In this document: positions 11,994 through 64,000 of the stretch, in pieces
How the letters are laid out: each line of letters starts with the position of its first letter
Numbering within the stretch: position 1 is the first letter of the stretch
DNA from: Candidatus Iainarchaeum sp.
GTDB taxonomy: Archaea > B1Sed10-29 > WALL01
Reading direction: 5' to 3'
Length of the DNA: 64,000 nt
Assembly (NCBI GenBank): GCA_023129115.1
Contig: JAGMCR010000013.1
Location: 1 to 64,000 of the forward strand
Position numbers and translations under genes: made by a program
The notes under the pieces: model-generated
What the model was told of the DNA's origin: nothing
The model's input: the letters and a program-made list of their open reading frames with translations, nothing else
Databases searched by the model: none

Positions 11994-12015
11994 GGCCCAA
12001 CAAAGAATCTCTTTA

Positions 12016-13164: not shown

Positions 13165-13177
13165 ACACCCTCTTAGG

Positions 13178-47034: not shown

Positions 47035-47607
47035 ATGAAGCGAGGTGTTCTGCTCACTCTTTTGCTGCTTGCAGCGGCTTCGGCCAGCCTGTTCGCTGTC
47101 GAGCACTCGCCGGGCCTCGTGGTGGGCGAGGACCAGGGCTACGTAATCACGCTCACCGACGCCAACAACGGCACCCCGGTTGAAGCGGCTTTGGTCGAGG
47201 CATACGGCGACGAGGGCGTCATCGCCCAAGGGGCCACCGGCGCCGACGGCAGCGTGCACTTCTTCCTGCACCCCGGGTCCCCGGGCTTCATCGCGTTCCG
47301 CGCGACTGCAGACGGCTACAACGAGTACGTCGTGGTGGAAGAAGTCACTGTGCCCGACGAGCCGGCGCCAGCCTACTCCACACCCACTCCAAAGCCGAAC
47401 GTGGCCACCAACCCAATAACCGGCTTCATCACACTTAACCCCACCGAAAGCTCAATCTTTTACTTCGGGTTCGCCGCGGTAATCGCGTCCCTGTTCGGCG
47501 CGACCTACATCTTTTACCTGAACTACATCATGGAAGAAGAAACAGAGGCCGCGTGGGACGTGACGCGCGTCATCGAGTCCGCGGCCGCGTGGCTGAAGGG
47601 CGACTAA
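47035..47607 (+). CDS. Secreted membrane-anchored Ig-like protein
   Basis: 190 residues from ATG 47035; an upstream GTG at 47026 is less likely. Signal peptide (RGVLLTLLLLAAASASLFA), then a carboxypeptidase-regulatory or Ig-like beta sandwich (YVITLTDANNGTPVEAALVEAYGD...GADGSVHFFLHPGSPGFIAFRA), a Pro/Thr linker, one membrane helix (FYFGFAAVIASLFGATYIFYL) and an acidic cytoplasmic tail. Probably a cell-envelope protein. Its end overlaps the convergent orc1 gene by 4 bp. Confidence 0.75.
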   Translation: MKRGVLLTLLLLAAASASLFAVEHSPGLVVGEDQGYVITLTDANNGTPVEAALVEAYGDEGVIAQGATGADGSVHFFLHPGSPGFIAFRATADGYNEYVVVEEVTVPDEPAPAYSTPTPKPNVATNPITGFITLNPTESSIFYFGFAAVIASLFGATYIFYLNYIMEEETEAAWDVTRVIESAAAWLKGD

Positions 47608-48620: not shown

Positions 48621-49093
48621 AGCTCCACCACGTAATGCCTTTTTTCGCCTTCGCGCACTTTTTCCCACTTGATGCCCTTGATTTTGCTTAGTATCGACTC
48701 CAGCCGGAGCGGGTTCACGTCGCCGTATTTCTTGCCGTGGAACATGCCGCTCATTTCACTGACTTCTTTCAGCACGACTTTTTTCATGCCGCTCTCCCTC
48801 GCGCCTTTGATGAAGTGCTCCAACACTTTGTAGCCTATTCCTTCGCCCTCGGGGTCAACCAGCAAGTCGGTAATGATGGTTGCCTTCCCATCACGCAATT
48901 CAACTTTGTGGCCTACCATCACATGGCCGATGGGGCTCCCCCCCACCCGGATGTGGTAGAAGACAGAGTCAAAGCCAACGCCGCCGTAACTGTCTTTGTA
49001 CGTATACGGCTTCCCTTCAAGGCTACTGGACCTGCATAGCGCAAGCGTCTTCCCACCGTGCTTTCCAATAGCTTCTTCAGGTGCCTTAGGCAT
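48617..49093 (-). CDS. GNAT-like acetyltransferase
   Basis: 158 residues. ATIITDLLVDPEGEGIGYKVLEHFIKGARESGMKKVVL fits the GNAT acetyl-CoA loop region (E-G-x-G-x-G/K variant) and following helix. The first 60 residues are less typical. Substrate unknown. Coupled to orc1/cdc6 by a 4-bp overlap. Confidence 0.7.
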   Translation of the reverse strand: MPKAPEEAIGKHGGKTLALCRSSSLEGKPYTYKDSYGGVGFDSVFYHIRVGGSPIGHVMVGHKVELRDGKATIITDLLVDPEGEGIGYKVLEHFIKGARESGMKKVVLKEVSEMSGMFHGKKYGDVNPLRLESILSKIKGIKWEKVREGEKRHYVVEL

Positions 49094-49633: not shown

Positions 49634-50017
49634 ATGGTTGATTACACAACAATAAAGTCGACTGAAATCAAGTACGGAAACAACAACTTCCTGGAAGTTG
49701 CACGAAAGGAGATCGAGGGCAACGAGTTCATCTCGCTGTCCAAGGGCTATTTCCTCCCGAACGGGAACAAGCGCTACAAGAGTGGCATCGGGTTCCCGGA
49801 CGAGAACGCACTGCCCCAGCAGCTCGCAGACGCCATCCTGCAGATGGCTTCCACCACGAAGACCATCAAGGAAACCGCAAAAGAGCTCGCTGCAGAAACA
49901 ACGGAAGTAGCTGAAGCGGCGCCCGCCGAAGAAAAGAAGGAAGAGGCGCCCGCCGAGGAAGCCCCCGAAGAGGAGGCTCCTGCCGAAGAGGCCCCGGCCG
50001 AAGAGGCTTCGGAATAA
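49634..50017 (+). CDS. PC4/PurA-like single-strand nucleic-acid-binding protein with acidic tail
   Basis: 127 residues. The N-terminal part (TEIKYGNNNFLEVARKEIEGNEFISLSKGY, then KRYKSGIGFP) has the beta-strand pattern of small PC4- or PurA-like ssDNA/RNA-binding domains. The tail from about residue 85 is low-complexity, rich in Glu, Ala and Pro (EEAPAEEAPEEEAPAEE). A TATA-like box lies about 49581-49590, so this mRNA may have a leader of some 20 nt. The family call is tentative; nucleic-acid binding is inferred. Confidence 0.6.
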   Translation: MVDYTTIKSTEIKYGNNNFLEVARKEIEGNEFISLSKGYFLPNGNKRYKSGIGFPDENALPQQLADAILQMASTTKTIKETAKELAAETTEVAEAAPAEEKKEEAPAEEAPEEEAPAEEAPAEEASE

Positions 50018-50061: not shown

Positions 50062-50095
50062 GGAGCCAATCTGCGCCTCGGCTCCCTATTTTTTT
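50062..50095 (+). terminator. Hairpin and T-run after the PC4-like gene
   Basis: GGAGCC (50062-50067) pairs with GGCTCC (50080-50085), followed by CTATTTTTTT. The T-run overlaps the stop of the convergent gene at 50086. Confidence 0.5.
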
Positions 50096-51447
50096 GCCAG
50101 GAATGGGTTCTTCCTCACCAGCGTCTTGTACACATTCCACCAGCCGTCAGCGTCACTCAGGTGCCTCCCGGCCTCGGCTTCCTTTCCCTTCTTCTCGTGC
50201 TTCAGCTTTGCCTTGGCCTTGCCCGTCGGCACCTCGAACTTCGTGGGGTGCCCCCACGTCGTCTGGCCGTGGTACTCCCTCTTCCCCTTCAGCGAATGCC
50301 TTGCCTTCTCATAGCTAAGCTTTGCCCACGCGTGATGCATGTGTGTAAACCACGCCTTCAGCATTTCCTCTCCCGCCTTCTCGACCTTCCGCGCCTCGTA
50401 ATCATCCCTGGACTCGCCCTCCTCCCGCGGCACGATTTTGTAGACCTTTTTCATGTGCTCGAGCGCGTCCTTCCGCGCTGCGTCAAACGGCAGCTCGTAG
50501 TCCTCAAGCCTCACGGCCTCGCCCTGCTGCTTCCGCTCCGCCAGGTCAAACATGGCGTATACCAGGTGATTCACCCCGGGCACGACGCTGTGCAGCGGCC
50601 ACCCGACTTCTAACCACGCAGTGCTTCCTGCAGTCGCGGCGTGGACGCCGGGCTCGGACTTCCTCAGCTCGTAAAGCTCCCTCAGCACATCGGAAAAGTT
50701 TTTTTGGGTCTTTTTTATCTCTCTCTCGTGCTCCGGTGTCCCAATCTTCCCGAGCAGCTTTATGTCGCGGTCCAGCCGCGCCAGGTCGCTCTCAATCGAG
50801 TGCTCGGTGAACGCCTCGCACACCCGCCGCGTCTTGCCGTAGTCAAGCTCGCCCCGATGCTTCAGCGCAAGCGCCCTCATGAAGTCGCCCCGCCGCGACG
50901 CGACGACCTGCTCCGGAACAGTCTCCTTGTTCCCGACCGGCAAAAACGCGTACGACAAGGCAATCAAGTCACCCTTCAGCGTCTCGTACCCCACCCTCTT
51001 TGCCTTAGGCTTGCCCTTGTTCCACTCCACCGCAAAGTCATTCAGGGCGTCCTTCCGAATCTTCTGGCGATTCTCGTACAGGTAGCCCACCATTTTCTGC
51101 ATCCGCTTCACGCGGCTGCCAATGAACGTCTGCCGCAGCTGCATGTTGAAGTGGTGAGCGATTGCGCCCGCGAGCACGTTCTTCTTGAAGCTCTTCCGCT
51201 TCCGAATTGTGTCCACGATTGCCTCGGCCTCGTGGCTTCGCCGTCCCTTCAGCAGGGGGTGCCGCGGCGCCAGCACGCGCGAGAAGTCAAGGAACTGGCC
51301 CCAGTATTCTCCGTCCCTGGCACCGTCGCGCTGCTCCCGCTTATGTATCCACTCGCGGATGCTGCCGTCCCTGATTTGCCCTGGCTTCCTGGCGATTTCG
51401 CCGAAAAAGTCGAACTTCCGCCTGAATTCCAGCTCCATCTTGGGCAT
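50086..51447 (-). CDS. Large hypothetical protein divergent from HerA-like gene
   Basis: 453 residues from ATG 51447, the start that fits the TATA-like box about 26 nt away (ATTATATAC on the minus strand, about 51469-51477). The protein is basic, soluble and mainly helical, rich in K, R and aromatic residues, with no recognised domain. Possible clusters are FKKNVLAGAIAHHFNMQLRQTF and WFTHMHHAWAKLSYEKARHSLKG (several His). It shares a 36-bp divergent promoter region with the HerA-like ATPase, which suggests joint control. Nucleic-acid binding is a guess. Confidence 0.7.
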   Translation of the reverse strand: MPKMELEFRRKFDFFGEIARKPGQIRDGSIREWIHKREQRDGARDGEYWGQFLDFSRVLAPRHPLLKGRRSHEAEAIVDTIRKRKSFKKNVLAGAIAHHFNMQLRQTFIGSRVKRMQKMVGYLYENRQKIRKDALNDFAVEWNKGKPKAKRVGYETLKGDLIALSYAFLPVGNKETVPEQVVASRRGDFMRALALKHRGELDYGKTRRVCEAFTEHSIESDLARLDRDIKLLGKIGTPEHEREIKKTQKNFSDVLRELYELRKSEPGVHAATAGSTAWLEVGWPLHSVVPGVNHLVYAMFDLAERKQQGEAVRLEDYELPFDAARKDALEHMKKVYKIVPREEGESRDDYEARKVEKAGEEMLKAWFTHMHHAWAKLSYEKARHSLKGKREYHGQTTWGHPTKFEVPTGKAKAKLKHEKKGKEAEAGRHLSDADGWWNVYKTLVRKNPFLAKK

Positions 51448-51483
51448 CACCTATTTATACGCTTATTCCGTATATAATCCTGC
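51448..51483. promoter_or_regulatory. Interleaved divergent promoters
   Basis: Only 36 bp separate ATG 51447 (minus) and ATG 51484 (plus). The plus-strand TATA-like ATTTATAC (about 51452-51459) lies closer to the minus gene, and the minus-strand TATATAAT (about 51471-51478) closer to the plus gene. Each is about 26 nt from its own start. Transcription in one direction should exclude the other. Confidence 0.65.
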
Positions 51484-53847
51484 ATGGAATTCAAGCCAAG
51501 GGTCAACTCCCCCCTGGACGCGCTGGAAGACGCCGCAGGCCGCAGCATTTTCGTGGGCCGCAGCCAGGCCCTCCACCGCAAGTACGGCCGCGAGGGCGCC
51601 CTGCTGCTGGGCAAAGTCGCGGAACAGGAAAAATACGGCGAGTTCGTCTACCTCGACGCATTGATGCCCCACACCATTTTCGTGTGCGGTTCAAAAGGCT
51701 CTGGCAAAAGCTATTCGATATCAATCATCGCCGAGGAATTGATTTACAAGAACCCAAATGTCGCAGTCGTAATCATCGACCCCATCGGCATCTTTTGGTC
51801 CATGAAGTACCCAAACCAGGAAGAGTCCGAGCTCGACGAATTGATTCGCATGGGCCTCGCGCCGCGCGGCGTCGCCGAGACGCGAGTCTTCGTCCCGTAC
51901 GGTGTCCGCAACACTTTGCCGCGCGACACCTACGACAAGACGTACGCACTGCGCCCCGCCGACTTGAACGTGGACGACTGGTGCATCACTTTCGACATCG
52001 ACCGGTTCTCCCCAACCGGCCTGCTCCTCGAAAAAACGCTCGAAAAAGTGTTCAACGGCTACAAGACCACGGACAAAAAGCACGTGAACCCCAACCCGGA
52101 CTACGGCCTCGAAGAAATAATCAACTGCCTCAACAACGACGCAGAGCTTTCCTCGAAGACCAAGGGCTTCAAGACGGACTCGCGCCGCGCGCTGACGTCC
52201 CGCTTCGAGTCGGCAAAGTCGTGGGGCATTTTTTCCGCGAGCGGCACTCCGCTCGTCGAATTGTGCCAGGAGGGCAAGGTCTCTGTAATCGACGTCTCGT
52301 TCCTTGACGAAAAAGTCAACGCGCTCGTCATCGGGCTGCTCGCGCGAAAGATTCTTAACGCGCGCAAGCTCGCGACGCGCAAGACCGCGATGAAGCGGCT
52401 CGCCGTGTCCATGGAGGAAGTCCTGGAGACCGGCATCCCGCCGACGTGGCTGTTCATCGACGAGGCCCACACCCTGATTCCCTCGGGCTCGCAGAAGACC
52501 GCCGCCTCGGACGCGCTCATTGAGTACGTGAAGCAGGGCCGCCGCCCGGGATGCTCGCTCGTGATGGCGACGCAGCAGCCCGCCGCGCTCGACACCAAAG
52601 TCCTCTCGCAGCTCGACCTGCTGGTCTGCCACAAGCTCACGTTCGACGACGACATCAAGGCCGTGTTCAAGCGAATGCCCGCGGGCATCCCCAAGGAGTA
52701 TTCCGCCCGATTCATCAAGACGCTCCCAATCGGGTATTGCTTGATTGGCGACAGGAGCGACCACACGAACAGGGTGTTCGCCGCCAAAATGCGGCCGCGG
52801 TTCTCGCAGCACGAGGGCCGCGAGACGCGGAGCGTCGACTTCGAGGAGACCCTGTCCGCGGAACAGGTGGAAGAGCTTGTCGTAAAGATGGTCAAGAAGC
52901 AATTGGTCGACTTCGGCCGCGTGAACCTTTCCAAAATAGACCAATTGGCCCGCACCATCAACAAGCGCTACGGCACCAAAGTCTCTGCCAAGTCAGTGGT
53001 CAAGGCAATCGAGGGCGCGGCGGTGGACAACGAGCAGCTCGTGCTGAAGGAAATCCTTGAGCAGGAGCAGGCCGCGGCCGAGGACTTGCCTGAAGAGCCG
53101 GCGCCCGAGGCGCCGAGCGGCGAGAACCTGCTGGCGTTCACTTCCCAAATCAGCGCGGAGCGGGCGAAGGGCCTGGCATTGAAGCAGCGCAAGGCGAAAT
53201 TATTCGGCTTGTTCGGGGACGAGGAGTCCTTGAAGGACCTGCGCATCGAGTACTGGCCGGTGTACAAGGTGGAGTACGACTATTACCAGGGCAAGGGCTT
53301 CAAGCGCTTGGTGTGCTACGTGGACGGCATGAACGGCGAATTGTTGAGCGTCGGCAGGGCGGGGATGGCCTCGACGCGCGGCGTGGGCCGCTTGACCACA
53401 ATGAACAAGAGCAAGCGCAAGATAATCGCGGCCCTGCGCAAGGGCAAGCAGGCGAGCGCGAAGGGAATCGCGGGCGTCGCCGAAATCACCGAGACGACCG
53501 CGCGGGCGAACGCGGAGGAATTGGCCGAGGACGGCCTGCTCTCTTATCGCGACGACGGCCGCGCCCGGACTTACGTGCTGAAGGAGCAGTTCGACCTGCC
53601 GCAGAAAATCAATGTGCCGGAGTACACTACTCTTGAGTCGCAATTAACGATGGGCGAGGCGAGCGGGTTTGTCCCCACGCCCCGCATCACACAGGAGTCT
53701 GTTTCCGACATCCCCGCGATTTTCGGCGAAGTAAAAATCAAGTCTGTTTCTTTCGTGTACCGCCCGGTCTACCACGCCTCGTTTGCCTCCACGAAGGGCC
53801 CCCGCGACGTCTACATAGACGGCATTGACGGGGCGGTGGCAAGATGA
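51484..53847 (+). CDS. HerA/VirB4-like ATPase with C-terminal wHTH and repeat domains
   Basis: 787 residues. RecA-fold pump-type ATPase: Walker A GSKGSGKS (69-76), Walker B WLFIDEAHTLIP (D326, E327), and VMATQQPAALDTKVLSQLD, as in HerA, FtsK and conjugation ATPases. A winged helix follows around 650-700 (KIIAALRKGKQASAKGIAGVAEIT). It is flanked by two related units, YWPVYKVEYDYYQGKG...CYVDGMNGE and YRPVYHASFASTKGP...YIDGIDGA. This build occurs in archaeal HerA-like proteins lacking NurA partners; none is adjacent here. It probably moves DNA or a polymer. Coupled to the next gene by overlap. Confidence 0.87.
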   Translation: MEFKPRVNSPLDALEDAAGRSIFVGRSQALHRKYGREGALLLGKVAEQEKYGEFVYLDALMPHTIFVCGSKGSGKSYSISIIAEELIYKNPNVAVVIIDPIGIFWSMKYPNQEESELDELIRMGLAPRGVAETRVFVPYGVRNTLPRDTYDKTYALRPADLNVDDWCITFDIDRFSPTGLLLEKTLEKVFNGYKTTDKKHVNPNPDYGLEEIINCLNNDAELSSKTKGFKTDSRRALTSRFESAKSWGIFSASGTPLVELCQEGKVSVIDVSFLDEKVNALVIGLLARKILNARKLATRKTAMKRLAVSMEEVLETGIPPTWLFIDEAHTLIPSGSQKTAASDALIEYVKQGRRPGCSLVMATQQPAALDTKVLSQLDLLVCHKLTFDDDIKAVFKRMPAGIPKEYSARFIKTLPIGYCLIGDRSDHTNRVFAAKMRPRFSQHEGRETRSVDFEETLSAEQVEELVVKMVKKQLVDFGRVNLSKIDQLARTINKRYGTKVSAKSVVKAIEGAAVDNEQLVLKEILEQEQAAAEDLPEEPAPEAPSGENLLAFTSQISAERAKGLALKQRKAKLFGLFGDEESLKDLRIEYWPVYKVEYDYYQGKGFKRLVCYVDGMNGELLSVGRAGMASTRGVGRLTTMNKSKRKIIAALRKGKQASAKGIAGVAEITETTARANAEELAEDGLLSYRDDGRARTYVLKEQFDLPQKINVPEYTTLESQLTMGEASGFVPTPRITQESVSDIPAIFGEVKIKSVSFVYRPVYHASFASTKGPRDVYIDGIDGAVAR

Positions 53848-54887
53848 TGCGGGAGCTGGCGAGGCAGCATTACATTGAGACCATGAGGCGGCTCCCGAAG
53901 TATGAGGGCGTCGGCGAGAGCTTCCACGACAGGGAGGCGGAGCGCTACGCAGACTTTTACACGCTCGGCCCCCGGCAGGGCGCGACCCTGGCGAACCTGC
54001 GGGAGCACGGCAGCGAAGAGCACCCCGAGGGCCTGAACGAGAAGAGGGTCACCGAGTGGCTCGCCTCAAAGTTCGTGGATGAGCAGGCCATGGCGCTGAG
54101 GCTTGTGCCGGGCCTTGCCCCGGACCCCGAGTTCAAGAAGATGGCCGACGTCATGGCGCACTGCCGCGAAATCATCAGGAACAAGTTCGGCGAGGGCACC
54201 AAGGAGTTCAAGAGCTTCCGGCTCAAGCACCTCCGCAACACGCTGGTTGACTATACCAACATGTACTTGTACGGCCCGAGGGGCAAGGTCGACCGGGGCT
54301 GGCTCAAGAGCAGGATTGAAAGGTTCGACTACTTGTGGGCAGTGCCCGGCTGGGACCCGCACCCCGAGTTCGCGGGCGTGGGCGAGCCAATCAGGCGGCT
54401 TCGGGAGAGGCAGGAACAGGCCGGCGCAACGCTCGATGAGCCACTGGCGCCAAGGGCTTCGTCGCTGCTCCGCGCCGTCAAGCCCGGGGAAACAACTCCT
54501 ACTCCAACACCAGAACTGGGGGTGTCGCCAGAACAGTCTCCGACGCCAACCGGGGGGACGCCAAAACCGGGGACGCCTGCTCCAACGCAAGAACCGGGGG
54601 TGTCGCCAGAATCGGCGACACCCCCAATTGCTGAGGCTGGGGAACCCGAGAAGCCAATTCCCGTGCTGAAGCAGGAAGAGGAAGAAGACGTGCTTTCCCT
54701 GCTGAAAAAGGAGACCCAAAATGACCTGCTCATCCACGCCCGCACCCTGGCCATGCTCAAGCCAGGAAAAAAGGTGACCATGGGAGACGTGGACCTATTG
54801 TCGTCTAAGATTATGGACCGCGGCATTGGCTACGAGGACGCGAAGAAGATAGCCAGGAAAATCATGGAGCAGGCAAGGCAGGGGTAG
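53844..54887 (+). CDS. Novel protein with Pro/Thr linker and shared C-terminal module
   Basis: 347 residues, starting at overlapping ATGs (53844/53847) on the HerA-like stop. The N-terminal helical domain (1-205) is not recognised. A linker (about 213-275, TPTPTPELGVSPEQSPTPTGG) follows, encoded by short DNA repeats including a perfect 12-bp inverted repeat (54596-54625). The last 55 residues (HARTLAMLKPGKKV...RGIGYEDAKKIARKIME) match the C-termini of the proteins at 55886 and 57919. Translational coupling suggests that it works with the ATPase. Confidence 0.7.
   Translation: MMRELARQHYIETMRRLPKYEGVGESFHDREAERYADFYTLGPRQGATLANLREHGSEEHPEGLNEKRVTEWLASKFVDEQAMALRLVPGLAPDPEFKKMADVMAHCREIIRNKFGEGTKEFKSFRLKHLRNTLVDYTNMYLYGPRGKVDRGWLKSRIERFDYLWAVPGWDPHPEFAGVGEPIRRLRERQEQAGATLDEPLAPRASSLLRAVKPGETTPTPTPELGVSPEQSPTPTGGTPKPGTPAPTQEPGVSPESATPPIAEAGEPEKPIPVLKQEEEEDVLSLLKKETQNDLLIHARTLAMLKPGKKVTMGDVDLLSSKIMDRGIGYEDAKKIARKIMEQARQG
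54596..54625. repeat. Palindromic repeat within coding linker
   Basis: GGGGGTGTCGCC and GGCGACACCCCC are perfect 12-bp arms with a 6-nt loop. Just upstream, at about 54552-54563, GGGGGACGCCAA repeats the half-site of the 24-bp palindromes at 7699 and 44907. Confidence 0.7.
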
Positions 54888-54892
54888 TTGCC

Positions 54893-55819
54893 ATGAAGGC
54901 GAAGAGCAGCAGGCACAGGGTTGAGGAAGGCATTCGCGGCTCCCCCAAGAACCGGACTGAGCAGGTCGTCCATTTCCTGGAGCCAGGCAAGGACCTCCAC
55001 ATCAAGGACATAACCCAAGAGGCCTACAAATATTTCGACATTGACCGCAAGCAGGTCCTGTCCACACTCATGCAGGGGGCAAAGGGGCCCGGCGCTTTTT
55101 TCGAGAGGATTAAGCCCGCCCATTACCGCCTGACGCCCCTGGGCAAAGAGCTCCAGAAGCTGGTCGAGCTGCCGCCCATGCGCGAGCTCCCGCCCGAGCC
55201 AGAGCCCGAGCCGCCGAAGAGCATTGAGGAAGCGCTGGAAGAGGAGTACTTCAGCATCACGGGCAAGAACCGCTCCAGCAAGCGCGTGCAGGATTCGGCA
55301 AAGCGCTTCAGGAACCTTTTTTTGACGGGCGTGTGGGCAACCGCGGAAAGCGAGGCGCCCAAGGGCTCGACCAGCGGCGTGGTGCGCAGGAAGAGGAGGC
55401 GCATCCTGTCCTGGATTAGCACCCACAAGCGGAACGCTTCGGAGCTCGCGAGGCTTGTGCAGGGCGAGCGCGAGTTTATGTACCCCGAGCTCATGAAGGA
55501 CGCCAAGCCACACCCCGAGCTCGCGGAAAAAATGACTGTGCCAGTGAAAAAGCAGGCTGTCGAGCGCTGGGACTTGGGTGCGAAGTACGACGACGCCATT
55601 TTCGCGGTGTGCAGGGAAAGGGAGTGCACGCCCCAGTTCCAGGACCCGCGCTTCACGGCGAGCGACACCAGCCGCCACCTATTGCTGGCCATGCTGGTGA
55701 GGGACGCCCGGGAAGAGGTCGAGTCATGGGAAAACCCACCCAAGGCCTACGAAAAGGACAAGCTCGGCTATCTGAGGAAAATTGTCGAGAACTGGGTCAA
55801 AAACAAGCACAAGGGTTGA
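54893..55819 (+). CDS. Novel protein with N-terminal winged-helix-like domain
   Basis: 308 residues. Residues 15-85 look like a winged helix (TEQVVHFLEPGKDLHIKDITQEAYKYFDI...YRLTPLGKELQKLVE). A Pro/Glu linker (PPEPEPEPPKS) and a helical C-terminal region follow (VRRKRRRILSWISTHKRNASELARL, then TSRHLLLAMLVRDAREEVESW). No known family. It lies 5 bp after the preceding gene in the same operon as the HerA-like ATPase, which favours a DNA-linked role. Confidence 0.68.
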   Translation: MKAKSSRHRVEEGIRGSPKNRTEQVVHFLEPGKDLHIKDITQEAYKYFDIDRKQVLSTLMQGAKGPGAFFERIKPAHYRLTPLGKELQKLVELPPMRELPPEPEPEPPKSIEEALEEEYFSITGKNRSSKRVQDSAKRFRNLFLTGVWATAESEAPKGSTSGVVRRKRRRILSWISTHKRNASELARLVQGEREFMYPELMKDAKPHPELAEKMTVPVKKQAVERWDLGAKYDDAIFAVCRERECTPQFQDPRFTASDTSRHLLLAMLVRDAREEVESWENPPKAYEKDKLGYLRKIVENWVKNKHKG

Positions 55820-55822
55820 TTC

Positions 55823-55882
55823 TGTCTAGACGTTTAGATTAAAACCCTACTATTTTATAAACTGTCTAGACATTTAAATTAA
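55823..55882 (+). promoter_or_regulatory. Double TGTCTAGAC operator, copy 1
   Basis: TGTCTAGACGTTTAGATTAA (55823-55842) and TGTCTAGACATTTAAATTAA (55863-55882) are direct repeats 40 bp apart that flank the TATA-like ATTTTATAA. The second covers the likely transcription start, just before ATG 55886. The same layout precedes the gene at 57919. Confidence 0.75.
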
Positions 55883-55885
55883 TTA

Positions 55886-57853
55886 ATGGAGAAGCGCGGC
55901 AGGAAGAAGGGCTACAGGTACACGAAGTACGACCCCAAGCGCTATTACTCTCCTGGCGACGCCCGCATCGAGGTTTGGAAGCGCATCGAGAAAAAGGAGT
56001 TTGAGAAGGGCTTCTTCTCGTACAAGGAGAACCGTGTGCTCGCCATCCAGATGCTCGTCGCGAAGCTCGTGCGGGACAAGGGCCTCCAGGTAAGCGAAAT
56101 CACGAGGGACCACTTCAGGGAACACGGCATGGACTGCCTGATTACTTATTTCAAGTCCAAGGAAAAGGCGCTCCGCGCCGCGGGGTTTTCCGACGAGTTA
56201 ATCACGACCAAGCCGGCGGAGCACGACGTCAGGGACATTCGGAGGGCCGTCCGGCTCATCAAGGGCGTGAAGGCCTCGGAAGACATTGACGACACCTTGG
56301 ACGGGCTGCACCGCAAAGTCTTCGGCAATGTGCCCAAAAAGATTGGCTACCGCTATCTCCTGAAACTCGCGGAGGAGCACACCGGAATTAAATACCGCAC
56401 GCTTTACCAGCTCTTCAACCCGAATTACGCGCGCTTCAAGAAGTACAGCCCCCGGCTCCGGGAGGAAATCCACGCCATCCGCGAGCAGTGGGGCCTCGAG
56501 GGAGAGACGGAGCCGGGCGAAGTGAAGCGCCCGGTGCACGTCCCGGGAGAAAGCCCGTTCAAGATGAGGGGCCTGACCGCCGAGGAAAAAACGCTCCTGC
56601 AGGACATACGCACGGGCTTCAGGAACTGGGACTTGACCTTCCTCTCGAGGAAGAAAAAGATTCCTGGCAATGTATGGACTGTCCTGATACTCCCCGAGGT
56701 CAGGAAGCTTTCGAAAGAGCTGCTCAAGAAAAGCCCTGAGCACGAGCCCAGGCTGCTGAGGATGCTCCGCAGGATGTACAAGCGCTCAAGCCACCGCACG
56801 CGGGGCGACAAGCTCCTCGAGAGAGTCAAGGAGTCCCTCGAGAGGGAAATGCTCCTCGGCGGGCCAGAGACAGGAAAAACGCGGGAGCTCCGGCTGCCGG
56901 CAGGCGTGCTGGACAAGCTGCTCCCGTTCATGACACCGAACCGCCGCCTCCAGGAAGTGCTCGAGGAGGCACAGCAGTACTTTCCCGAGTTGAGTTTCCC
57001 CCAGGCCGAGGCCGCGGTCTATCTCGACAGGAGCAGTATTGACCCCCACATCAACCTGTCTTTCTTTGGCGGCGATTACGTGCGGACCAAGAAGGGCGAG
57101 GAGGCAGCGGCGTCCATTCTCCTGCCGCCGAAGCTTGGGACCCCGGCGAGGGAAGGGCTCGACCAAAAGCGCCTGCAGGAAGAGTCGGCCCGCGAGGAAG
57201 TGGAGCGGCTGAAGCGCGTGGCCGAAGAGGAATTGACCCCGGAGGAGAAAGAAGAACTGTTTGCCGACAAGGCACTGGAGGACTTCACCAGCGCCACCGG
57301 CGTCAAGGGCATGGTCGCCCAGCGGTTCAGGAACTATGTCAGGGCAGGCCCAGAGCATGATGTCAAGACACCGTCGGAGCACGCCACGAAGGAAGAGTTC
57401 AGGCTGCTGGGGCAGGAGATCCCCAAAGCCGGAATCGGCTTCAAGCAATGGCAAATCAAGCAGTGGCTCTCGAGGTACCTTGCGCACCCCGAGCTCAAGA
57501 AGTACCGGCGGGAGGACGAGCCGCTCCATGAAGTCGAGGAAGAGCCGCCCGAGATTCCGGTCCCAAAGACCAAAAAAAGGAAGAAAATCGGGCCGCCAGA
57601 GCCAAAGAAAGAAGAAGAGCCCCCGAAGCCCGCCGGCCGGCCCAGGGAGGTAAAGTCCCTGCTCGAGGGCCTCTCGGCGGCGGACCGGAAGAACTTTGAC
57701 AGCCAGGCCCGCGGCCTCCTCAGGCAATGCGGTGGAGACGCCAGAAAGGCGACGGACCTGCTGGCCCAGAGCGTTTCGCGCCTGGGCTACGGCCCCCGCG
57801 AGGCCAGCAGGATAGCAGCCAAAATAGTCGAAATAGAGAAAAAACTCTACTAA
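55886..57853 (+). CDS. Novel multidomain DNA-binding-like protein (paralogue A)
   Basis: 655 residues. An N-terminal domain of about 210 residues contains a unit like the homing-endonuclease-associated repeat (VSEITRDHFREHGMDCLITY, FKSKEKALRAAGFS), then GYRYLLKLAEEHTGIKYRTLYQLFNP. A central domain (about 228-330, EEKTLLQDIRTGFRNWDLTF) and the C-terminal module (SQARGLLRQ...LGYGPREASRIAAKI) also occur in the paralogue at 57919. A charged middle and Pro/Lys linker lie between. No nuclease motif is seen. Expression is probably controlled by the double operator upstream. Confidence 0.75.
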   Translation: MEKRGRKKGYRYTKYDPKRYYSPGDARIEVWKRIEKKEFEKGFFSYKENRVLAIQMLVAKLVRDKGLQVSEITRDHFREHGMDCLITYFKSKEKALRAAGFSDELITTKPAEHDVRDIRRAVRLIKGVKASEDIDDTLDGLHRKVFGNVPKKIGYRYLLKLAEEHTGIKYRTLYQLFNPNYARFKKYSPRLREEIHAIREQWGLEGETEPGEVKRPVHVPGESPFKMRGLTAEEKTLLQDIRTGFRNWDLTFLSRKKKIPGNVWTVLILPEVRKLSKELLKKSPEHEPRLLRMLRRMYKRSSHRTRGDKLLERVKESLEREMLLGGPETGKTRELRLPAGVLDKLLPFMTPNRRLQEVLEEAQQYFPELSFPQAEAAVYLDRSSIDPHINLSFFGGDYVRTKKGEEAAASILLPPKLGTPAREGLDQKRLQEESAREEVERLKRVAEEELTPEEKEELFADKALEDFTSATGVKGMVAQRFRNYVRAGPEHDVKTPSEHATKEEFRLLGQEIPKAGIGFKQWQIKQWLSRYLAHPELKKYRREDEPLHEVEEEPPEIPVPKTKKRKKIGPPEPKKEEEPPKPAGRPREVKSLLEGLSAADRKNFDSQARGLLRQCGGDARKATDLLAQSVSRLGYGPREASRIAAKIVEIEKKLY

Positions 57854-57856
57854 TTC

Positions 57857-57915
57857 TGTCTAGACGTTACGATTAATACCACTAGCTTTATATAATGTCT
57901 AGACGTTACGATTAA
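57857..57915 (+). promoter_or_regulatory. Double TGTCTAGAC operator, copy 2
   Basis: TGTCTAGACGTTACGATTAA occurs at 57857-57876 and 57896-57915, 39 bp apart, flanking the TATA-like CTTTATATA (about 57886-57894). ATG 57919 follows. It is nearly identical in design to 55823-55882, so one factor probably controls both paralogues. Confidence 0.75.
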
Positions 57916-57918
57916 TCA

Positions 57919-60900
57919 ATGCCCAAGGGTTTGGAGGAAAGGAAGCTCGGCCGCAAGCCCGGCTTTAAGTTCCCGAAGGTCGAGCCGGACAAGCTGCGGC
58001 CAATAATCAAGGATTATCTTGAGAAGAAAAGGGATTCGCTCGCGGACGGCTTCTGGACGCACGAGGACCAGGCGGCGACTGCGGTGCGCATGATGGTCGG
58101 GAAGCTCGTGCGGGACCGCGGCCTGCAGGTGAGCGAAGTCACTCAAGACCATTTCCCTGAGTTTGGCATGGGGAGCGCGCTTAGGGTTTTCGGCTCGAAG
58201 GAAAACGCGCTCAAGGCCGCGGGGTTTTCTGACGAGCTAATCAATACAAAGCCGGCGGAGCACGATGTCGCGAGCATTCGAAACGCGGTCCGCTTGATTG
58301 AGGGCGTCAAGGGCCCGGGGGACATTGACGAGGCTTTGCACAACTTGCACCGCAGGGTGTTCGGTGATTCTCCCAAGCGGGTCAGCTATCGTTATTTGCT
58401 GAAGCTCGCGGAAGAATACACGGACATCAATTATCGCACGCTTTACCAGCTCTTCAACCCGAAGTATTCCCGGTTCAAGGATTTCGACAAGGGCCTCAAG
58501 GACGGCATAAAAGCAATCCGCAGGCACTGGCGCATCGGGGAAAAAGTGGCGGTGAAGCGTGAAGTGTACTCGCCGCTTGACCGCGGTTTGCTGGAGAAGC
58601 GAAAGCGGGCGAGTGCCGACGAGCGAAAGGCGGCTCACTGGTTTAACGTTAATCTCAAGGATGCTAGTACTGCTTCCGTCGGGGGGCTGAGGCGCGGCCT
58701 CACGGTATTGCCGCTGCTTTCGCACGAGGTGCGTGTGGCAATCCTCGCGCGCCTTAAGCCTGAGAACTATGACTATCGCGTGTCTTTCAGGAAAGGCGTC
58801 GTGGGGTTGACTACGAAGGAGCGGGAGGCGATAAGGCCGCACGTGCCCCCCGGGCTCAAGGAGCTTTTTGACGAAATCCCGCTTGGCGGAGTGGACCTGG
58901 AGCTGCCTTCGGCAAAGGCGGCTGAGGAAGACTTGTGGGAGAAGCAGAGGGAGCTCCAGAGGCTGGAGACCCAGAAACTGATTGAGGAGTGGAAGGAAGA
59001 GCTGCTGGAAGAGGGGGAGAGGCAATTGCGGGAGAAGGCGAGGGACGAGCAGGACTACCAGAAAATGCGTAGGGCAGAGGAAGAAAAGCTGGAGAGGCAG
59101 CGCAAGGCGGAGACGTGGAGGCGCTTGCTGAAGGAGAAGAGGGCGGAGCAGGAAAGGGAGGGGAGGGAGAAGGCGCTTGAGGAAAAGAAGAGGCAGCGCC
59201 AGGAAATGAAGCAGAAGCTGTTCGAGGAAAAAGAGGAAAAGAAGCGCTTGGGGATGGAGGCGAAGCGGCTCAAGAAGCAAAAGGAAGAGCAGGAGCGCGA
59301 GGCGCAGAAGGAATGGGAAAAGCAGCAAAAAGAATTGCAGAAACAGAAAGAAGCCGCGGAAGTTGTCGAGAAAGGCGTTGCCTTCTTGGAGGAGTCGGCT
59401 GAGGGAGAGGGTTGGTTCGTTAGTTCTAAGGAGCGTGTGGACCGGGTCCCGCTTTCGTTCTTGTCGGGGGAGCTAGACAAGCCTGGCCCGAGACTAGGGA
59501 AGTATTTTGATGGCATGTCCTCCGAGCAGCTGGAGCGCGTGAAGGCGGCTGCAGACAAAAACGCGGCAAAGCAGGCGGCGAAGAAGGCGGTGAAGCAAAG
59601 GGCGGTGGAAGAGCAGGAGCTGGCGAGGCGGGAGGCCTGGGCGAAGAGACAGGCGGAAATGGAGAAGGCTCGGGCGAAGAGAAAAGAGGAAGTGGAGAAG
59701 GCTCTGGAAGCGAAAGCCGGGGAGGAAGCGAGGCTAATCAAGGAGCTCACCGAAGCCAGCGCCCCAGACCTCCCTGCCATGACACATACCCAGAAGATTT
59801 ACGAGTTCGGCCGCACGCACAAGGGCTTCAGGACAAACGAATTGATGGCGTGGCTGGAGGCACGCGATCCAACCATCTCGCGCAATCGCCATGGCGTGTA
59901 CTATGCTATTGGGCGAATGTACAGGAACAAAAAAGAGCTGTCCAAGACGGACAGCGTCTACACTTTTACTCCGGAGGGGGAGCGCAGCATCAAGCTCCAC
60001 GAGGGCCTCAAGGGGAAGAGAACCCCAGAGACCATGGCCGAAAGAATCTTCTCTTTGGTAGAGCCGGGAGTGGGGTATTCAAGCCACTGGCTTATCGAGA
60101 ACCTGTCCAAGCATTACAAGGAAGACAAGGACCTGGACTCCAAGACGTTCAGCACCAAGATTCACGCCAGCCTGCACACCGGCCTTCTCTTCGAAAGGCC
60201 GGACTATGTTTATTTCCTGACGCCCAGGGGGGTCGAGAACAGGAAGCCGATTGCGTCCGTCCATGACCTCAAGGAAGCGCTGGGCGAGCCCCCCGCAGAA
60301 ATTGCCGGCGAGGCCGTTGAGCTGGAGATTGGCGGCAAGCCCAGAAGGGTCGTGCTCACCCCCAAAGAAAAGGAGATCCTGGGCAAGCTCCGTGGCGGCT
60401 TCGAGAAAAAGACTTTGCGCTTTGTCGCCACCGAAAGGTTCCTCCAGGCTTACGGCAATTTGATAGTGCCGGAGGTGGAAAAGCTGGCACTGAAGTTCCT
60501 CAGGGACAACCCGACTGCCGGGGCACTTGAGACCCTGCGCGTTATAGTGGGCACCATGTACGCGGACCCCAAGACGGCGAGTGCCGGCAGGATTATCAGC
60601 AACGTAAGGGCAGAGCTCGCCAAGGAAGGCATTGAAGTAAAAGAGCCAGCCCCGCAGAAGGCGGTTGCGCCCGAGGGGCCCAGCGCCACGGAGGAAGAGC
60701 TCTGGGCGGAAATAATTGCGCGGCAGAAAGAAGAGGAGAAACAAAAGAAGAAAGAAGAGCCAAAAAAGCCTTCAGGCGCGGGGAAGCCGGGCAGGGCAAA
60801 ATTCGGGGAAGAGCGCCCGCCCGTGTCGCTGAAGGACTTGCCGGCCACAGAACAGTACAACCTCGCTGTCCAGGCCCGCAACCTGCGCAAGAAGTTCAGC

Positions 60901-61008
60901 CCCAGCCAAGCCGTGCGATTCCTGGCCGAGCAGATAGAGGCCAAGGGCTACGGCAAGGCCGACGCAGTAAGAATAGCAAAGGAAATCCTGGAGAAAGAAA
61001 AGCAATAG
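57919..61008 (+). CDS. Novel giant coiled-coil DNA-binding-like protein (paralogue B)
   Basis: 1029 residues. Residues about 1-200 match paralogue A (VSEVTQDHFPEFGMGSALRV, then FGSKENALKAAGFS, GYRYLL replaced by SYRYLL). A long charged coiled coil spans about 330-615 (EKQRELQRLETQKLIEEWKE onward). Two winged-helix-like units follow about 620-770 (MTHTQKIYEFGRTHKGFRTN and MAERIFSLVEPGVGYSSHWL). The second shared domain is near 815-905 (KEKEILGKLRGGFEKKTLRF). The C-terminal module (AVQARNLRKKFS...KGYGKADAVRIAKEIL) ends it. The layout suggests an elongated DNA-bridging or structural protein; function unknown. Confidence 0.75.
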   Translation: MPKGLEERKLGRKPGFKFPKVEPDKLRPIIKDYLEKKRDSLADGFWTHEDQAATAVRMMVGKLVRDRGLQVSEVTQDHFPEFGMGSALRVFGSKENALKAAGFSDELINTKPAEHDVASIRNAVRLIEGVKGPGDIDEALHNLHRRVFGDSPKRVSYRYLLKLAEEYTDINYRTLYQLFNPKYSRFKDFDKGLKDGIKAIRRHWRIGEKVAVKREVYSPLDRGLLEKRKRASADERKAAHWFNVNLKDASTASVGGLRRGLTVLPLLSHEVRVAILARLKPENYDYRVSFRKGVVGLTTKEREAIRPHVPPGLKELFDEIPLGGVDLELPSAKAAEEDLWEKQRELQRLETQKLIEEWKEELLEEGERQLREKARDEQDYQKMRRAEEEKLERQRKAETWRRLLKEKRAEQEREGREKALEEKKRQRQEMKQKLFEEKEEKKRLGMEAKRLKKQKEEQEREAQKEWEKQQKELQKQKEAAEVVEKGVAFLEESAEGEGWFVSSKERVDRVPLSFLSGELDKPGPRLGKYFDGMSSEQLERVKAAADKNAAKQAAKKAVKQRAVEEQELARREAWAKRQAEMEKARAKRKEEVEKALEAKAGEEARLIKELTEASAPDLPAMTHTQKIYEFGRTHKGFRTNELMAWLEARDPTISRNRHGVYYAIGRMYRNKKELSKTDSVYTFTPEGERSIKLHEGLKGKRTPETMAERIFSLVEPGVGYSSHWLIENLSKHYKEDKDLDSKTFSTKIHASLHTGLLFERPDYVYFLTPRGVENRKPIASVHDLKEALGEPPAEIAGEAVELEIGGKPRRVVLTPKEKEILGKLRGGFEKKTLRFVATERFLQAYGNLIVPEVEKLALKFLRDNPTAGALETLRVIVGTMYADPKTASAGRIISNVRAELAKEGIEVKEPAPQKAVAPEGPSATEEELWAEIIARQKEEEKQKKKEEPKKPSGAGKPGRAKFGEERPPVSLKDLPATEQYNLAVQARNLRKKFSPSQAVRFLAEQIEAKGYGKADAVRIAKEILEKEKQ

Positions 61009-61077
61009 TAGTTTCATCCGTATTCAATATCTCCCGCAAACAAAGGTCTTTATAAACTACTCCTGCGTTTATTGCGT

Positions 61078-64000
61078 ATGCCCAAGCGCGGAAAGAAAAA
61101 GCGTGGCTCCAGGTTCAGCGTCGACAAGGCGGTTGTCCATCTCGAGAGCCGCATCGATTCCGGCGAGGGCTGGCCGCTCACACAAGGGAGGAGGCGGCCT
61201 GATGGCTTGCCGGCCTCTTTTTTGGGCAAGAAGTTTGGCGTTAGCACGGCCACGGTTTTACGCCACTTCGAAGGCATCAGCGCCGGGCACAAGAAGCGCC
61301 TTGCAACAACAGTCAAGAAAAACGCAGCAATCCAGGCAGCGAAGCGCGAGAGCGGCGAAGTAGGCAAGCTCTTCAAGAGGAGGGGGGACGCAATCCTCCA
61401 CATAGAGCAGCTCGTCCAGTCCGGCGAGGGCTGGCCGATTACCGATGGCGTACCAAGTAAGTATGGCATACCAATCCACGGGCTGGCGAGGCGCTTTGGA
61501 GTCGCCCCCGAGACTGTGAGGGCGTGGTTCGATACAATGTCTGCCACGCACACAAAACAAATCAAGGCAGCAGTGAAGAAAAACGAAAGAATCCAAAAAA
61601 AGAAGCGCGAGACCGAAGGCCAGGCGACGGCGTGGACAAAGAAAAATCTTGACGCCGCCCTTAATCACTTGGACGGGCTCGTCCAGTCCGGCGAGGGCTG
61701 GCCGTTGGGCAAGGGCAGGAGGCGCGCCGATGGGGCGCCGCTCACTCTCCTGGCAGCGCAGCTTGGCTATTCCCACAAGGGGGTGACTCACTGGTTTGAC
61801 AACATCACTCCCAGGCACGCGGCTCGCTTGGCAAAGATTGTCGCGAAAAACAATGCCGTCCAAGAAAAAAAGAAGGCGGCCGGCGAGCCCAGGCTGTCGG
61901 CAGCGGGGATAAACTGCGAGGCTGCCCTGTCCCATTTGGAGTCGCTTGTTAAGTCTGGTGCCGGGTGGAGCCTGCACTACGTAAGGCGCTCCGACAGCGT
62001 GCCGACCAGTATTGTGGCCAATCACTTGGGGGTTTCTTATTCGACGGCCATGCGCTTGTTTGAGAAGCTTCACCCCAGCCACGAGAAGCGCGTGAAGAAA
62101 GTCGTGAATGCAAACAAGCGGCTGCAGAAGAAGCTGGAAAAGCTCTATGGGCCGCTTAATCCCAAAACTCGGGCGCAGCTCGAAAAGGCCCTCGGCCACT
62201 TGGACTCGCTTGTGAAGTCGGGCGAGGGGTGGGAGCTGGCCGGCGGCAGGCCGCCGAAGCATGGTGTCCCCTACGGCGTTTTGGCCGATAAGTTCAACAT
62301 GACGAACGCAGGCGTGCGCGTGTGGTTCACCAATATGGGGAGCGTCCACGCGAAGCGGCTGAAAAAGATTGTTGCGGCGAATGACCGGATTCGGAAGAAA
62401 AAACTGGGGACCGAGGGGGTCTCGCGGGCGGAGGCGGTAATGCGGCGGGAGGCCGCCATCGAGCACCTTGAAGAGCGCGTCAATTCCGGGGAGGGCTGGT
62501 CTATTAAGGGGCGGAGGACGGCTGACGCGATTCCTTTCACGCTTTTGGGCAAGAAGTTCAACAGGCGCGCCAATATTGTTGCGGCATGGTTCAAGAACAT
62601 GCCTGCAGGCCACAAGAAGCGCGTGGAAAGGGTGCTCAGGAAGAACGCTAAGCTGTGGGAGAGGACGGGAGAATCCACGTTGCACAAGAACCGCGGGCAA
62701 GCAATTTCTTATCTCGAGTCCCGCGTGGAGTCGGGCGAGGGCTGGGACACTGCCTATGTCAAGCATGCGCTGGGCGTTCCCCTCCAGCTTTTGGTCGAGC
62801 ACTTTAAGACAAGCGTGACCACGCCGGGGAAGTGGTTCGCGGACGTGCCGGCTGCCCACAAGAAGCGCATCAAGAAGGTCGTGAAAGAGAATGATGCGCT
62901 TCAGTACGAAAACGTGGATACTGTCGGCCGCTGGGCACAGGACAGGCACGAGGCGTTGTCCCACTTGGAGAATCGTGTGAAGTCCGGCGAGGGCTGGCCG
63001 TTGCGCGGCAGGAAGTGGGGCAAGCCCCCGTATACTCTATTGGCGGAGCATTTCAATGTCGCCTCGCCCACTGTAAAGCGTTGGTTCGAAAAAATTGGTG
63101 AATCGCACCACGCGCGCCTCAACAAAGTGTTGACGGAGAACACAGTTCTCCAAAAGAAAAAGGGGGAGGGTGTGCTCTCCCCACAAGAATTGAGGAAGCT
63201 TGAGAAATCACTCGCCTTCCTCGAGGGCCGTGTTGGGTCGGGCGAGGGCTGGTCCAGGCGCTACGGCCGCAGGCACCCCGACCGCTTGCCGGTCATGCTT
63301 CTGGCCGACGGGCTTAATGCAAGCAAGGAGAAGGTCAAGCAGTGGTTCTCGAAGGCCACTCCAGGCCATGTAGAGCGCTTGGCGAAAGTCGTTGAGGCGA
63401 ACGACGAGCTCCAGGACGCGAAGCCCCCACAGAAGTCCAGCACGTCCAGTGTCGTGGTACTCAAGAAAATCAACGCGGCCATGGGCCGCCTAGACGAATT
63501 GCTGGAGGAGGGCGGGTGGCGCCCCTCTTGGCGCGCGGACGGTGTGCCTGTTTCCGTCATCGCGAAGGAGATGAAGAAGAGTGGCCCAACAGTGAGGTAC
63601 TGGCTGGAGAGGATGACCGAGGAACAAAAGGCGCGGTTGACCGCACAAGTGAAAAAGAATGCTGGGATTCAGGCCGCGAGAGCTGAAGAATCGAAGAGGC
63701 AGGCAGAAGAAATCAAAAAGGCGAAGGCGGCCGAGCGCGGGAGGCAGAAGCAAGCCGAGCGGCTTGCGGAGAGGGAGAAAAAGATTGATGATTCACTTGA
63801 CCACTTGAAAACATTGCTTGGGGGGGATGGCTGGTCGCTGAAGCACGGAAGAAACCGGGTGGACCGGGCGCCGGTTCGCATTATGGGCAAGCTTCACGGC
63901 GTCAGCCGGCTGACCGCCGCCTCGTGGATGAACAACGCGACCGAAGAGCAGAAGCAGCGGCTCGCGGTTCTCGTGGGGGAGAATGACGCAATCCAGGCGG
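61078..64000 (+). CDS. Giant tandem HTH-repeat protein (SGEGW repeats), 3' end beyond window
   Basis: An open frame from ATG 61078 to the window end, 974 codons without a stop. A TATA-like CTTTATAAAC (about 61049-61058) is at leaderless distance. At least eleven repeats of 82-104 residues are present. Each has the form HLExxVxSGEGW-PL-GRR-DG-P, then a helix-turn-helix (LLAKKFGVSxxTVxxWFxxM) and H-KRLxKVVKKNxxIQxKK. The SGEGW-type motifs start at 61159, 61420, 61687, 61954, 62218, 62485, 62731, 62983, 63238, 63508 and 63820; the last two are degenerate. No catalytic domain is seen yet. It probably coats or counts DNA sites; I know of no described family with this layout. Confidence 0.82.
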   Translation, partial: MPKRGKKKRGSRFSVDKAVVHLESRIDSGEGWPLTQGRRRPDGLPASFLGKKFGVSTATVLRHFEGISAGHKKRLATTVKKNAAIQAAKRESGEVGKLFKRRGDAILHIEQLVQSGEGWPITDGVPSKYGIPIHGLARRFGVAPETVRAWFDTMSATHTKQIKAAVKKNERIQKKKRETEGQATAWTKKNLDAALNHLDGLVQSGEGWPLGKGRRRADGAPLTLLAAQLGYSHKGVTHWFDNITPRHAARLAKIVAKNNAVQEKKKAAGEPRLSAAGINCEAALSHLESLVKSGAGWSLHYVRRSDSVPTSIVANHLGVSYSTAMRLFEKLHPSHEKRVKKVVNANKRLQKKLEKLYGPLNPKTRAQLEKALGHLDSLVKSGEGWELAGGRPPKHGVPYGVLADKFNMTNAGVRVWFTNMGSVHAKRLKKIVAANDRIRKKKLGTEGVSRAEAVMRREAAIEHLEERVNSGEGWSIKGRRTADAIPFTLLGKKFNRRANIVAAWFKNMPAGHKKRVERVLRKNAKLWERTGESTLHKNRGQAISYLESRVESGEGWDTAYVKHALGVPLQLLVEHFKTSVTTPGKWFADVPAAHKKRIKKVVKENDALQYENVDTVGRWAQDRHEALSHLENRVKSGEGWPLRGRKWGKPPYTLLAEHFNVASPTVKRWFEKIGESHHARLNKVLTENTVLQKKKGEGVLSPQELRKLEKSLAFLEGRVGSGEGWSRRYGRRHPDRLPVMLLADGLNASKEKVKQWFSKATPGHVERLAKVVEANDELQDAKPPQKSSTSSVVVLKKINAAMGRLDELLEEGGWRPSWRADGVPVSVIAKEMKKSGPTVRYWLERMTEEQKARLTAQVKKNAGIQAARAEESKRQAEEIKKAKAAERGRQKQAERLAEREKKIDDSLDHLKTLLGGDGWSLKHGRNRVDRAPVRIMGKLHGVSRLTAASWMNNATEEQKQRLAVLVGENDAIQA

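What the first reader, a model, noticed from the sequence alone, without database searches (positions are those of the whole stretch)
50086..64000. A 14-kb cluster of novel proteins around a HerA-like ATPase
HerA-like ATPase, a coupled linker protein, a winged-helix protein, two large paralogues and the repeat protein are collinear, with a divergent large hypothetical sharing the promoter. No NurA nuclease, relaxase or capsid gene is present. Multi-domain DNA-binding-like subunits plus a translocase could form a new DNA-translocation, chromosome-organisation or defence complex.
Basis: inference. Interest (0 to 1): 0.8.

Follow-up and report, generated by a model that had tools for sequence, protein, structure and literature searches.

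The report
Fast-evolving DNA-binding gene cassette beside HerA
In an uncultured tiny-genome archaeon, a conserved DNA-pumping enzyme of the HerA family sits beside a block of five unusual, mostly large, fast-changing DNA-binding-like proteins that only its closest relatives have in any form, some of which carry their own private control sequence; what the block does is unknown, and its link to the pump is suggested by position, not shown.

Summary
The cluster is real. The window lies in a 1.25-Mb DPANN archaeal genome. Two layers of different age sit side by side. (1) An old core: a second HerA-type ATPase (HerA2, distinct from the canonical NurA-HerA pair elsewhere in this genome) found in most of the phylum and widely in Diapherotrites. 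Within the order it is flanked by a divergent HTH-bearing protein (P1), often Orc1/Cdc6, and a convergent 95-aa gene. (2) A young cassette, P3-P7, lying exactly between HerA2 and the 95-aa gene. Related cassettes occur in 4 of 5 genomes of its family; three order relatives have HerA2 and the 95-aa gene end to end instead. Cassette proteins are mosaics of shared modules. P7 has twelve HTH repeats, and a different wHTH array fills the equivalent protein of another genus. A 22-bp element (TGTCTAGACRTTAnnATTAA) precedes P5 and P6, and cassette genes in two other genera; good matches are essentially confined to the cassette in these three genomes. Defence and mobile-element readings are not supported. 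Most likely: lineage-specific, self-regulated, chromosome-binding proteins that work with, or simply beside, a HerA-type translocase. Physical coupling to HerA2 is inferred only.

The parts
47604..48668 (-). Orc1/Cdc6-like AAA+ ATPase, part of the order-level conserved neighbourhood
   Evidence: Pfam AAA_22, Cdc6_lid; also beside HerA2/P1 in G002, G005, G007, and beside P1's other contig piece in G008
49634..50017 (+). 127-aa protein with acidic tail, conserved between Orc1/Cdc6 and P1 in G002, G005, G008; function unknown
   Evidence: tblastn 52-67% identity; no Pfam family
50086..51450 (-). P1, 454-aa basic protein with a conserved HTH-like stretch (SYETLKxDL), divergent partner of HerA2
   Evidence: translation; family in 10 of 25 genomes searched; alignment
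51451..51483 (.). 33-bp divergent intergenic region with facing TATA-like boxes
   Evidence: sequence read directly
51484..53847 (+). HerA2: HerA/FtsK-superfamily ATPase (1-453) with C-terminal wHTH (about 640-704) flanked by two similar beta-rich segments
   Evidence: DUF87 E 7.8e-16; AF2 pLDDT 84.7; VIA Z 34.0 to S. solfataricus HerA; alignment of 25
53844..54887 (+). P3, 347 aa, overlaps the HerA2 stop by 4 bp; C-terminal module shared with P5 and P6
   Evidence: held-out HMM of P5+P6 hits P3, domain E 3.6e-4
54893..55819 (+). P4, 308 aa, winged-helix-like module shared with P6 and a G001 protein
55822..55843 (+). 22-bp element copy 1 (CTGTCTAGACGTTTAGATTAAA)
55854..55861 (+). TATA-like box of P5 between the two element copies
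55862..55883 (+). 22-bp element copy 2, ending 2 bp before the P5 start codon
55886..57853 (+). P5, 655 aa, class-B cassette protein (N-terminal module, middle module, C-terminal module)
57856..57877 (+). 22-bp element copy 3
57895..57916 (+). 22-bp element copy 4, ending 2 bp before the P6 start codon
57919..61008 (+). P6, 1029 aa, class-B paralogue of P5 with an inserted charged stretch, one P7-type repeat and wH modules
61072..64000 (+). P7, 1284 aa (continues to contig position 64926): 12 HTH repeats of ~80-90 aa, pI 10.2; its stop overlaps that of the convergent 95-aa gene (contig 64923-65210)

Best explanation
HerA2 is a housekeeping ring-type double-stranded-DNA translocase of this DPANN phylum and of Diapherotrites, separate from the NurA-HerA end-resection pair. 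In one family of the phylum a block of mostly large, basic, modular HTH/winged-helix proteins (P3-P7 here) has accumulated in the gap between HerA2 and a convergent 95-aa gene. These proteins probably coat or bridge chromosomal DNA through many HTH units in tandem and may act as lineage-specific adaptors for the translocase in chromosome handling (organisation, segregation or repair). Some cassette genes form a small closed regulon: a 22-bp partly palindromic element, present twice at each of the P5 and P6 promoters on both sides of the TATA box, is most simply an autorepressor operator; the class-B N-terminal module is the best candidate binder. Shown: anatomy, module sharing, distribution, cassette-restricted element, HerA fold. 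Inferred: DNA binding, repression, functional coupling to HerA2.
For: HerA fold and motifs. HerA2 in 18 of 19 phylum genomes and widely in Diapherotrites. Separate NurA-HerA pair in this genome. HerA2 and the 95-aa gene side by side or bracketing inserted genes in 9 of 9 order members where both could be seen; 4- to 11-bp overlap or 10-bp gap in G009, G008, G010, cassette between them in G000, G003, G004. Class-B proteins only in G000, G001, G003, G004. Module sharing. Element matrix built on G000 sites alone finds its best sites in the G003 and G004 loci in cassette gaps, same orientation, and no strong site in G002, G005, G008, G009 loci; genome-wide, all four G000 matches with 0-1 mismatch and all five G004 matches (up to 3) are in the cassette. 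P3 overlaps the HerA2 stop.
Against: The element is absent from the HerA2 promoter, so cassette and ATPase need not be co-regulated. HerA2 persists without the cassette in every other lineage, and in G002 of the same family a related gene lies beyond the 95-aa gene. No direct evidence of binding, complex formation or chromosomal role; histone, SMC-type and Rad50-type proteins are all present, so nothing obvious is being replaced.
Confidence: 0.4

Rival explanations
1. The cassette is an independent, self-regulated island of DNA-binding proteins that merely sits and diversifies at a tolerant site between HerA2 and the 95-aa gene; it has no functional tie to HerA2.
For: The 22-bp element precedes cassette genes but not HerA2; P5, P6, P7 have their own promoters; HerA2 is widespread without it; in G002 a related gene lies on the other side of the 95-aa gene.
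Against: Where class-B proteins occur they are next to HerA2 (G000, G001, G004) or on a contig whose end overlaps the HerA2 contig by 127 bp (G003); P3 overlaps the HerA2 stop codon.
Confidence: 0.33
2. It is a defence or conflict system: HerA motor plus rapidly diversifying DNA-recognition subunits aimed at foreign DNA.
For: HerA motors drive several anti-phage systems and match here by fold; the cassette is fast-evolving and modular: HerA2 79% identical between G000 and G001, the next class-B protein ~23-27% over shared parts.
Against: No nuclease, SIR2, DUF4297 or other effector found in P1, P3-P7; HerA2 is a core gene, not patchy.
Confidence: 0.12
3. It is an integrated or decaying mobile element that brought its own DNA-binding proteins.
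For: Clean insertion between two genes that abut in relatives; lineage-restricted unnamed genes.
Against: No integrase or transposase gene; no relatives of class-B N-terminus or HerA2 in IMG/VR, nor of P5/P7 in phage or P6 in plasmid records, in the searches run; codon usage among the closest on the contig to the background; large intact frames; the same cassette type kept in three or four genera.
Confidence: 0.07
4. HerA2 and its partners form a DNA import/export or cell-to-cell transfer motor (Ced/TraB/VirB4-like).
For: Weak profile similarity to CedB/CedD, TraB, VirB4; VIA Z about 27 to VirB4.
Against: All FtsK-HerA ATPases share this core; no membrane channel or pilus gene in the cluster; HerA relatives score higher.
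Confidence: 0.05

Closest known systems
HerA (archaeal bipolar DNA translocase, NurA partner; 4d2i, 9x1m)
   Same: Same ATPase fold and motifs over residues ~1-453 (Z 34.0 and 29.6); DUF87
   Different: No NurA next to it; far below the NCBIfam HerA equivalog cut-offs (46-47 bits against 800-970); ~65 residues before Walker A; C-terminal ~330 aa with a wHTH between two similar beta segments
Defence HerA systems (SIR2-HerA/Nezha, HerA-DUF4297, MADS mad8)
   Same: Homologous motor; PADLOC HerA E 1.6e-24, mad8 E 1.6e-19
   Different: No effector partner recognised; gene is core, not patchy
FtsK, and the proposal that HerA is its archaeal functional analogue (Iyer et al. 2004, discussed in PMC2958812)
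   Same: Same ATPase superfamily; a C-terminal winged helix after the motor, as in FtsK's DNA-reading gamma domain (analogy)
   Different: No room for an N-terminal membrane domain before the motor; no evidence for directing sequences or Xer coupling
HNH_repeat / homing-endonuclease-associated repeat (PF18780)
   Same: One stretch of the class-B N-terminus in G003 matches weakly (E 0.0016)
   Different: Below gathering score; no nuclease domain recognised; the P5/P6 versions do not match
Archaeal 'dark matter islands' (PMC4158269)
   Same: Cluster of fast-evolving unnamed genes with a HerA-like ATPase
   Different: Here the ATPase is a core gene, several proteins are giant and DNA-binding-like, and no viral/mobile hallmark is found

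Membership tests
HerA/FtsK superfamily (HerA branch) | HerA central domain with Walker A and Walker B and HerA-like fold | tested here: met
   DUF87 E 7.8e-16; GxxGSGKS and WLFIDEAH conserved in alignment of 25; VIA Z 34.0
Canonical NurA-HerA end-resection pair | HerA linked to NurA | tested here: not met
   No NurA at the locus; NurA PF09376 lies beside another HerA on contig C13; low score to HerA equivalogs
Defence HerA systems | Adjacent effector (SIR2, DUF4297, nuclease) | tested here: not met
   No such match in P1, P3-P7 in PADLOC, Pfam, PHROGs, NCBIfam
MADS (mad8) | mad1-mad8 gene set | tested here: not met
   Only mad8 matches the ATPase; one weak HTH-level mad1 hit on a P7 repeat
FtsK chromosome pump | Membrane domain plus motor plus gamma winged helix | tested here: not met
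   Only ~65 aa precede Walker A; the C-terminal wHTH is weakly matched (DUF7342 E 5e-4 below cut-off; AdcR chain E 1.6e-4)
HTH DNA-binding repeats (P7) | Recognisable helix-turn-helix units in tandem | tested here: met
   HTH_Tnp_4, HTH_23, HTH_28 etc. above Pfam cut-off; 12 repeats; all-helical two-repeat AF2 model, pLDDT 81.6
Homing-endonuclease-associated repeat (class-B N-terminus) | PF18780 above gathering score | tested here: inconclusive
   G003 member 19.2 bits against 26; none in P5/P6
Mobile element | Integrase/transposase or virus/plasmid relatives | tested here: not met
   None found in the searches run
HerA2 hexameric translocation on dsDNA | ATP-driven translocation by a hexamer | not testable with these tools
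   Needs biochemistry

The most novel reading that the evidence does not exclude
A new type of sequence-guided chromosome-handling machine: a HerA-family DNA pump whose loading or direction is set by lineage-specific arrays of a dozen or more HTH units, evolving as fast as centromere-binding proteins do and kept in dose by their own private operators.
Probability: 0.15. Interest if true: 0.85.

Novelty: new variant of a known kind. Interest (0 to 1): 0.5.

Why it matters
Archaea lack FtsK, and HerA has been proposed as its functional analogue (PMC2958812 citing Iyer et al. 2004). A second, core HerA family in DPANN archaea, often beside Orc1/Cdc6 in this order, is a concrete candidate. In one family it has gained giant tandem-HTH neighbours with cassette-restricted control elements and a repeat type that differs between genera. 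If the two are coupled, this is a tractable case of fast-evolving chromosome-binding proteins attached to a conserved DNA pump, in organisms with very small genomes.

Tried and rejected
Defence: PADLOC, Pfam, PHROGs and NCBIfam on all cluster proteins gave no effector. Mobile origin: IMG/VR scans with the class-B N-terminus and HerA2 found no relatives; alignments of the P7 repeat and of P1 were too variable for that tool; phage/plasmid tblastn negative; codon usage host-like. Replacement of histones or SMC: both present. Large genes right downstream of HerA2 in G011 and G014 looked like a parallel case but have a signal-peptide-like start and Asn/Ser/Thr-rich body, are homologous only to each other and share no module with the cassette. 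An exact match of the element in G008 lies inside a coding gene in a ribosomal-protein neighbourhood: chance. Fold search with the two-repeat P7 model gave no significant PDB match. A PC4-like reading of the 127-aa protein, from memory, was not supported by Pfam. Papers on HerA in Diapherotrites/DPANN: nothing on this locus. The middle module of P5/P6 and the P5/P7 C-terminal similarity are weak (E about 1e-4 to 1e-3 in a small set) and not relied on.

Full report
WHAT IS THERE. The window is contig C5:1-64000 of a 1.25-Mb archaeal genome of 19 contigs. Close relatives are named as Diapherotrites, Micrarchaeota or 'DPANN group' archaea. The last gene, P7, runs past the window to 64926 and its stop overlaps that of a convergent 95-aa gene at 64923-65210. 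HerA2-P3-P4 are tightly packed (4-bp overlap, 5-bp gap), while P5, P6 and P7 each follow a 63-66 bp gap with a TATA-like box.

THE ATPase. P0002 has the HerA central domain (DUF87 E 7.8e-16) and intact Walker motifs conserved across 25 homologues. An AlphaFold2 model (pLDDT 84.7) matches Sulfolobus HerA with Z 34.0 over residues 2-453. Residues 454-787 carry a weakly matched winged helix (about 640-704) between two similar beta-rich segments; this part was not tested by itself. The genome also holds a canonical NurA-HerA pair on contig C13 (NurA PF09376 E 1.7e-4 beside a 520-aa HerA), so P0002 is a second HerA type, here called HerA2. Full or partial HerA2 is in 18 of the 19 phylum genomes (G013 shows only a weak match) and widely in Diapherotrites; shorter relatives occur in other DPANN and Methanosarcina. 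In Diapherotrites at large its neighbours are often housekeeping genes such as the GlmM- and GlmS-like genes downstream (names read from sequence). In several relatives the gene holds a ~600-aa insertion at Walker A with intein-like ends.

THE OLD NEIGHBOURHOOD. In the order, HerA2 is next to the convergent 95-aa gene, directly or with genes between, in all nine genomes where both could be seen (G000, G002, G003, G004, G005, G007-G010). P1 lies divergently beside HerA2 in G000, G001, G002, G003, G005, G006, G008 and G009. Orc1/Cdc6 is near in G000, G002, G005 and G007, and in G008 on a contig that ends inside P1. A 127-aa acidic-tailed gene lies between Orc1/Cdc6 and P1 in G000, G002, G005 and G008. 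P1 relatives also occur away from HerA2 in G013 and G014, and a DUF460 gene accompanies P1 in G006 and G009.

THE YOUNG CASSETTE. P3-P7 fill the gap between HerA2 and the 95-aa gene. In G009, G008 and G010 those two genes overlap by a few bases or lie about 10 bp apart. G004 has genes of 335, 895, 1128 and 79 aa plus one reversed 281-aa gene between them. G003 has two giant genes: its HerA2 contig and contig C30 share an exact 127-bp end overlap, and together give a gene of roughly 1300 aa followed by a 1424-aa gene and then the 95-aa gene. G001 has a gene of at least 694 aa directly after HerA2 before its contig ends. G002 has none between, but a 421-aa relative of the G003/G004 first large gene lies just past the 95-aa gene. 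Class-B proteins (P5, P6, G004 1128 aa, G003 1424 aa, part of G001 694 aa) are absent from the other 15 phylum genomes; G003's and G004's are alike over ~430 aa (E 7.5e-43).

MODULES. The cassette proteins are mosaics. P5 and P6 share N-terminal, middle and C-terminal modules; the C-terminal module is also in P3 (domain E 3.6e-4 with P3 held out). P7 has twelve HTH repeats (pI 10.2 for the whole protein); one copy is in P6 (E 1e-10 with P6 held out) and a weaker one in the G001 protein. A wH module links P4, P6 and the G001 protein (E 4e-9 with the latter held out). P7-type repeats are found nowhere else in 25 genomes searched. G003's 1424-aa protein instead has six copies of a different ~95-aa wHTH-like repeat. 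Two genera thus carry tandem HTH arrays of different kinds in this cassette. Between G000 and G001 HerA2 is 79% identical and P1 52%, while the cassette proteins align at only ~23-33% over parts.

THE 22-bp ELEMENT. TGTCTAGACRTTAnnATTAA occurs twice before P5 and twice before P6, 39-40 bp apart, one copy upstream of the TATA-like box and one between it and the start codon. A matrix made from these four sites alone picks, as best sites of the G003 and G004 loci, positions before their cassette genes in the same orientation: 25.2 bits in G003 C6, 17.0 and 15.7 in C30, 22.9, 16.6 and 15.4 in G004. The best scores in loci of G002, G005, G008 and G009 are 11.8, 9.9, 14.7 and 13.4. The lower G003/G004 scores overlap what shuffled sequence can reach with a similar matrix (up to 17), so it is the position and orientation that carry them. 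Genome-wide, all four G000 hits with up to one mismatch, and all five G004 hits with up to three, are in the cassette; in G003 three of the four hits with up to two mismatches are. G001 has only poor matches. The layout resembles a repressor operator around an archaeal TATA box (inference). HerA2's own promoter lacks it.

HOW IT MOST LIKELY WORKS. HerA2 is most likely a ring translocase on double-stranded DNA (fold supported by model; activity inferred from the family). The cassette proteins most likely bind DNA through many HTH units (HTH shown by profile and an all-helical model; binding inferred). That the two act together is suggested by position and the P3 overlap only. HerA has been suggested as an archaeal FtsK analogue (PMC2958812), which would fit a chromosome-handling role, but histone, SMC-type and Rad50-type proteins are all present, so the cassette replaces none of them. 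An independent self-regulated island is nearly as likely. Defence and mobile-element origins are less likely on the tests made.

NOVELTY. The ATPase belongs to a known superfamily; P1, P3-P6 and the 95-aa protein have no family in the libraries searched, and P7 is known only as an HTH array. No paper on the locus was found.

Noticed in passing
L037:1367-5662, L088, L104 (HerA2 of G003, G015, G017): HerA2 genes in several relatives are about 1300-1480 codons long, with a ~600-aa insertion at the Walker A motif; in G003 it begins with Cys and ends in HN followed by Ser: probable inteins.
   Followed up: partly
window 9514-13188 and 22336-23304; contig C5 78098-79567: Islets of ~40% GC with codon usage unlike the rest of the contig; possible recent acquisitions.
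   Followed up: no
window 49634-50017: Short protein with a repetitive acidic tail, conserved between Orc1/Cdc6 and P1 in four genomes; no Pfam family.
   Followed up: partly
L164:7987-9093, L166:8074-9351: P1-family members away from HerA2, beside or near thermosome and RNase HII-like genes in G013 and G014.
   Followed up: partly
L061:7864-8715, L109:1749-2606: A DUF460 (PF04312) gene sits next to P1 and HerA2 in family f3 relatives.
   Followed up: partly
L043:13383-16547, L045:11055-14243: In G011 and G014 the gene after HerA2 is a ~1055-aa protein that looks secreted (N-terminal hydrophobic stretch, Asn/Ser/Thr-rich), unrelated to the cassette.
   Followed up: yes
contig C5 around 50-52 kb: Cumulative GC skew reaches its minimum near the P1/HerA2 divergent promoter, about 3 kb from Orc1/Cdc6; gene direction changes at the same place, so this may not mark an origin.
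   Followed up: partly
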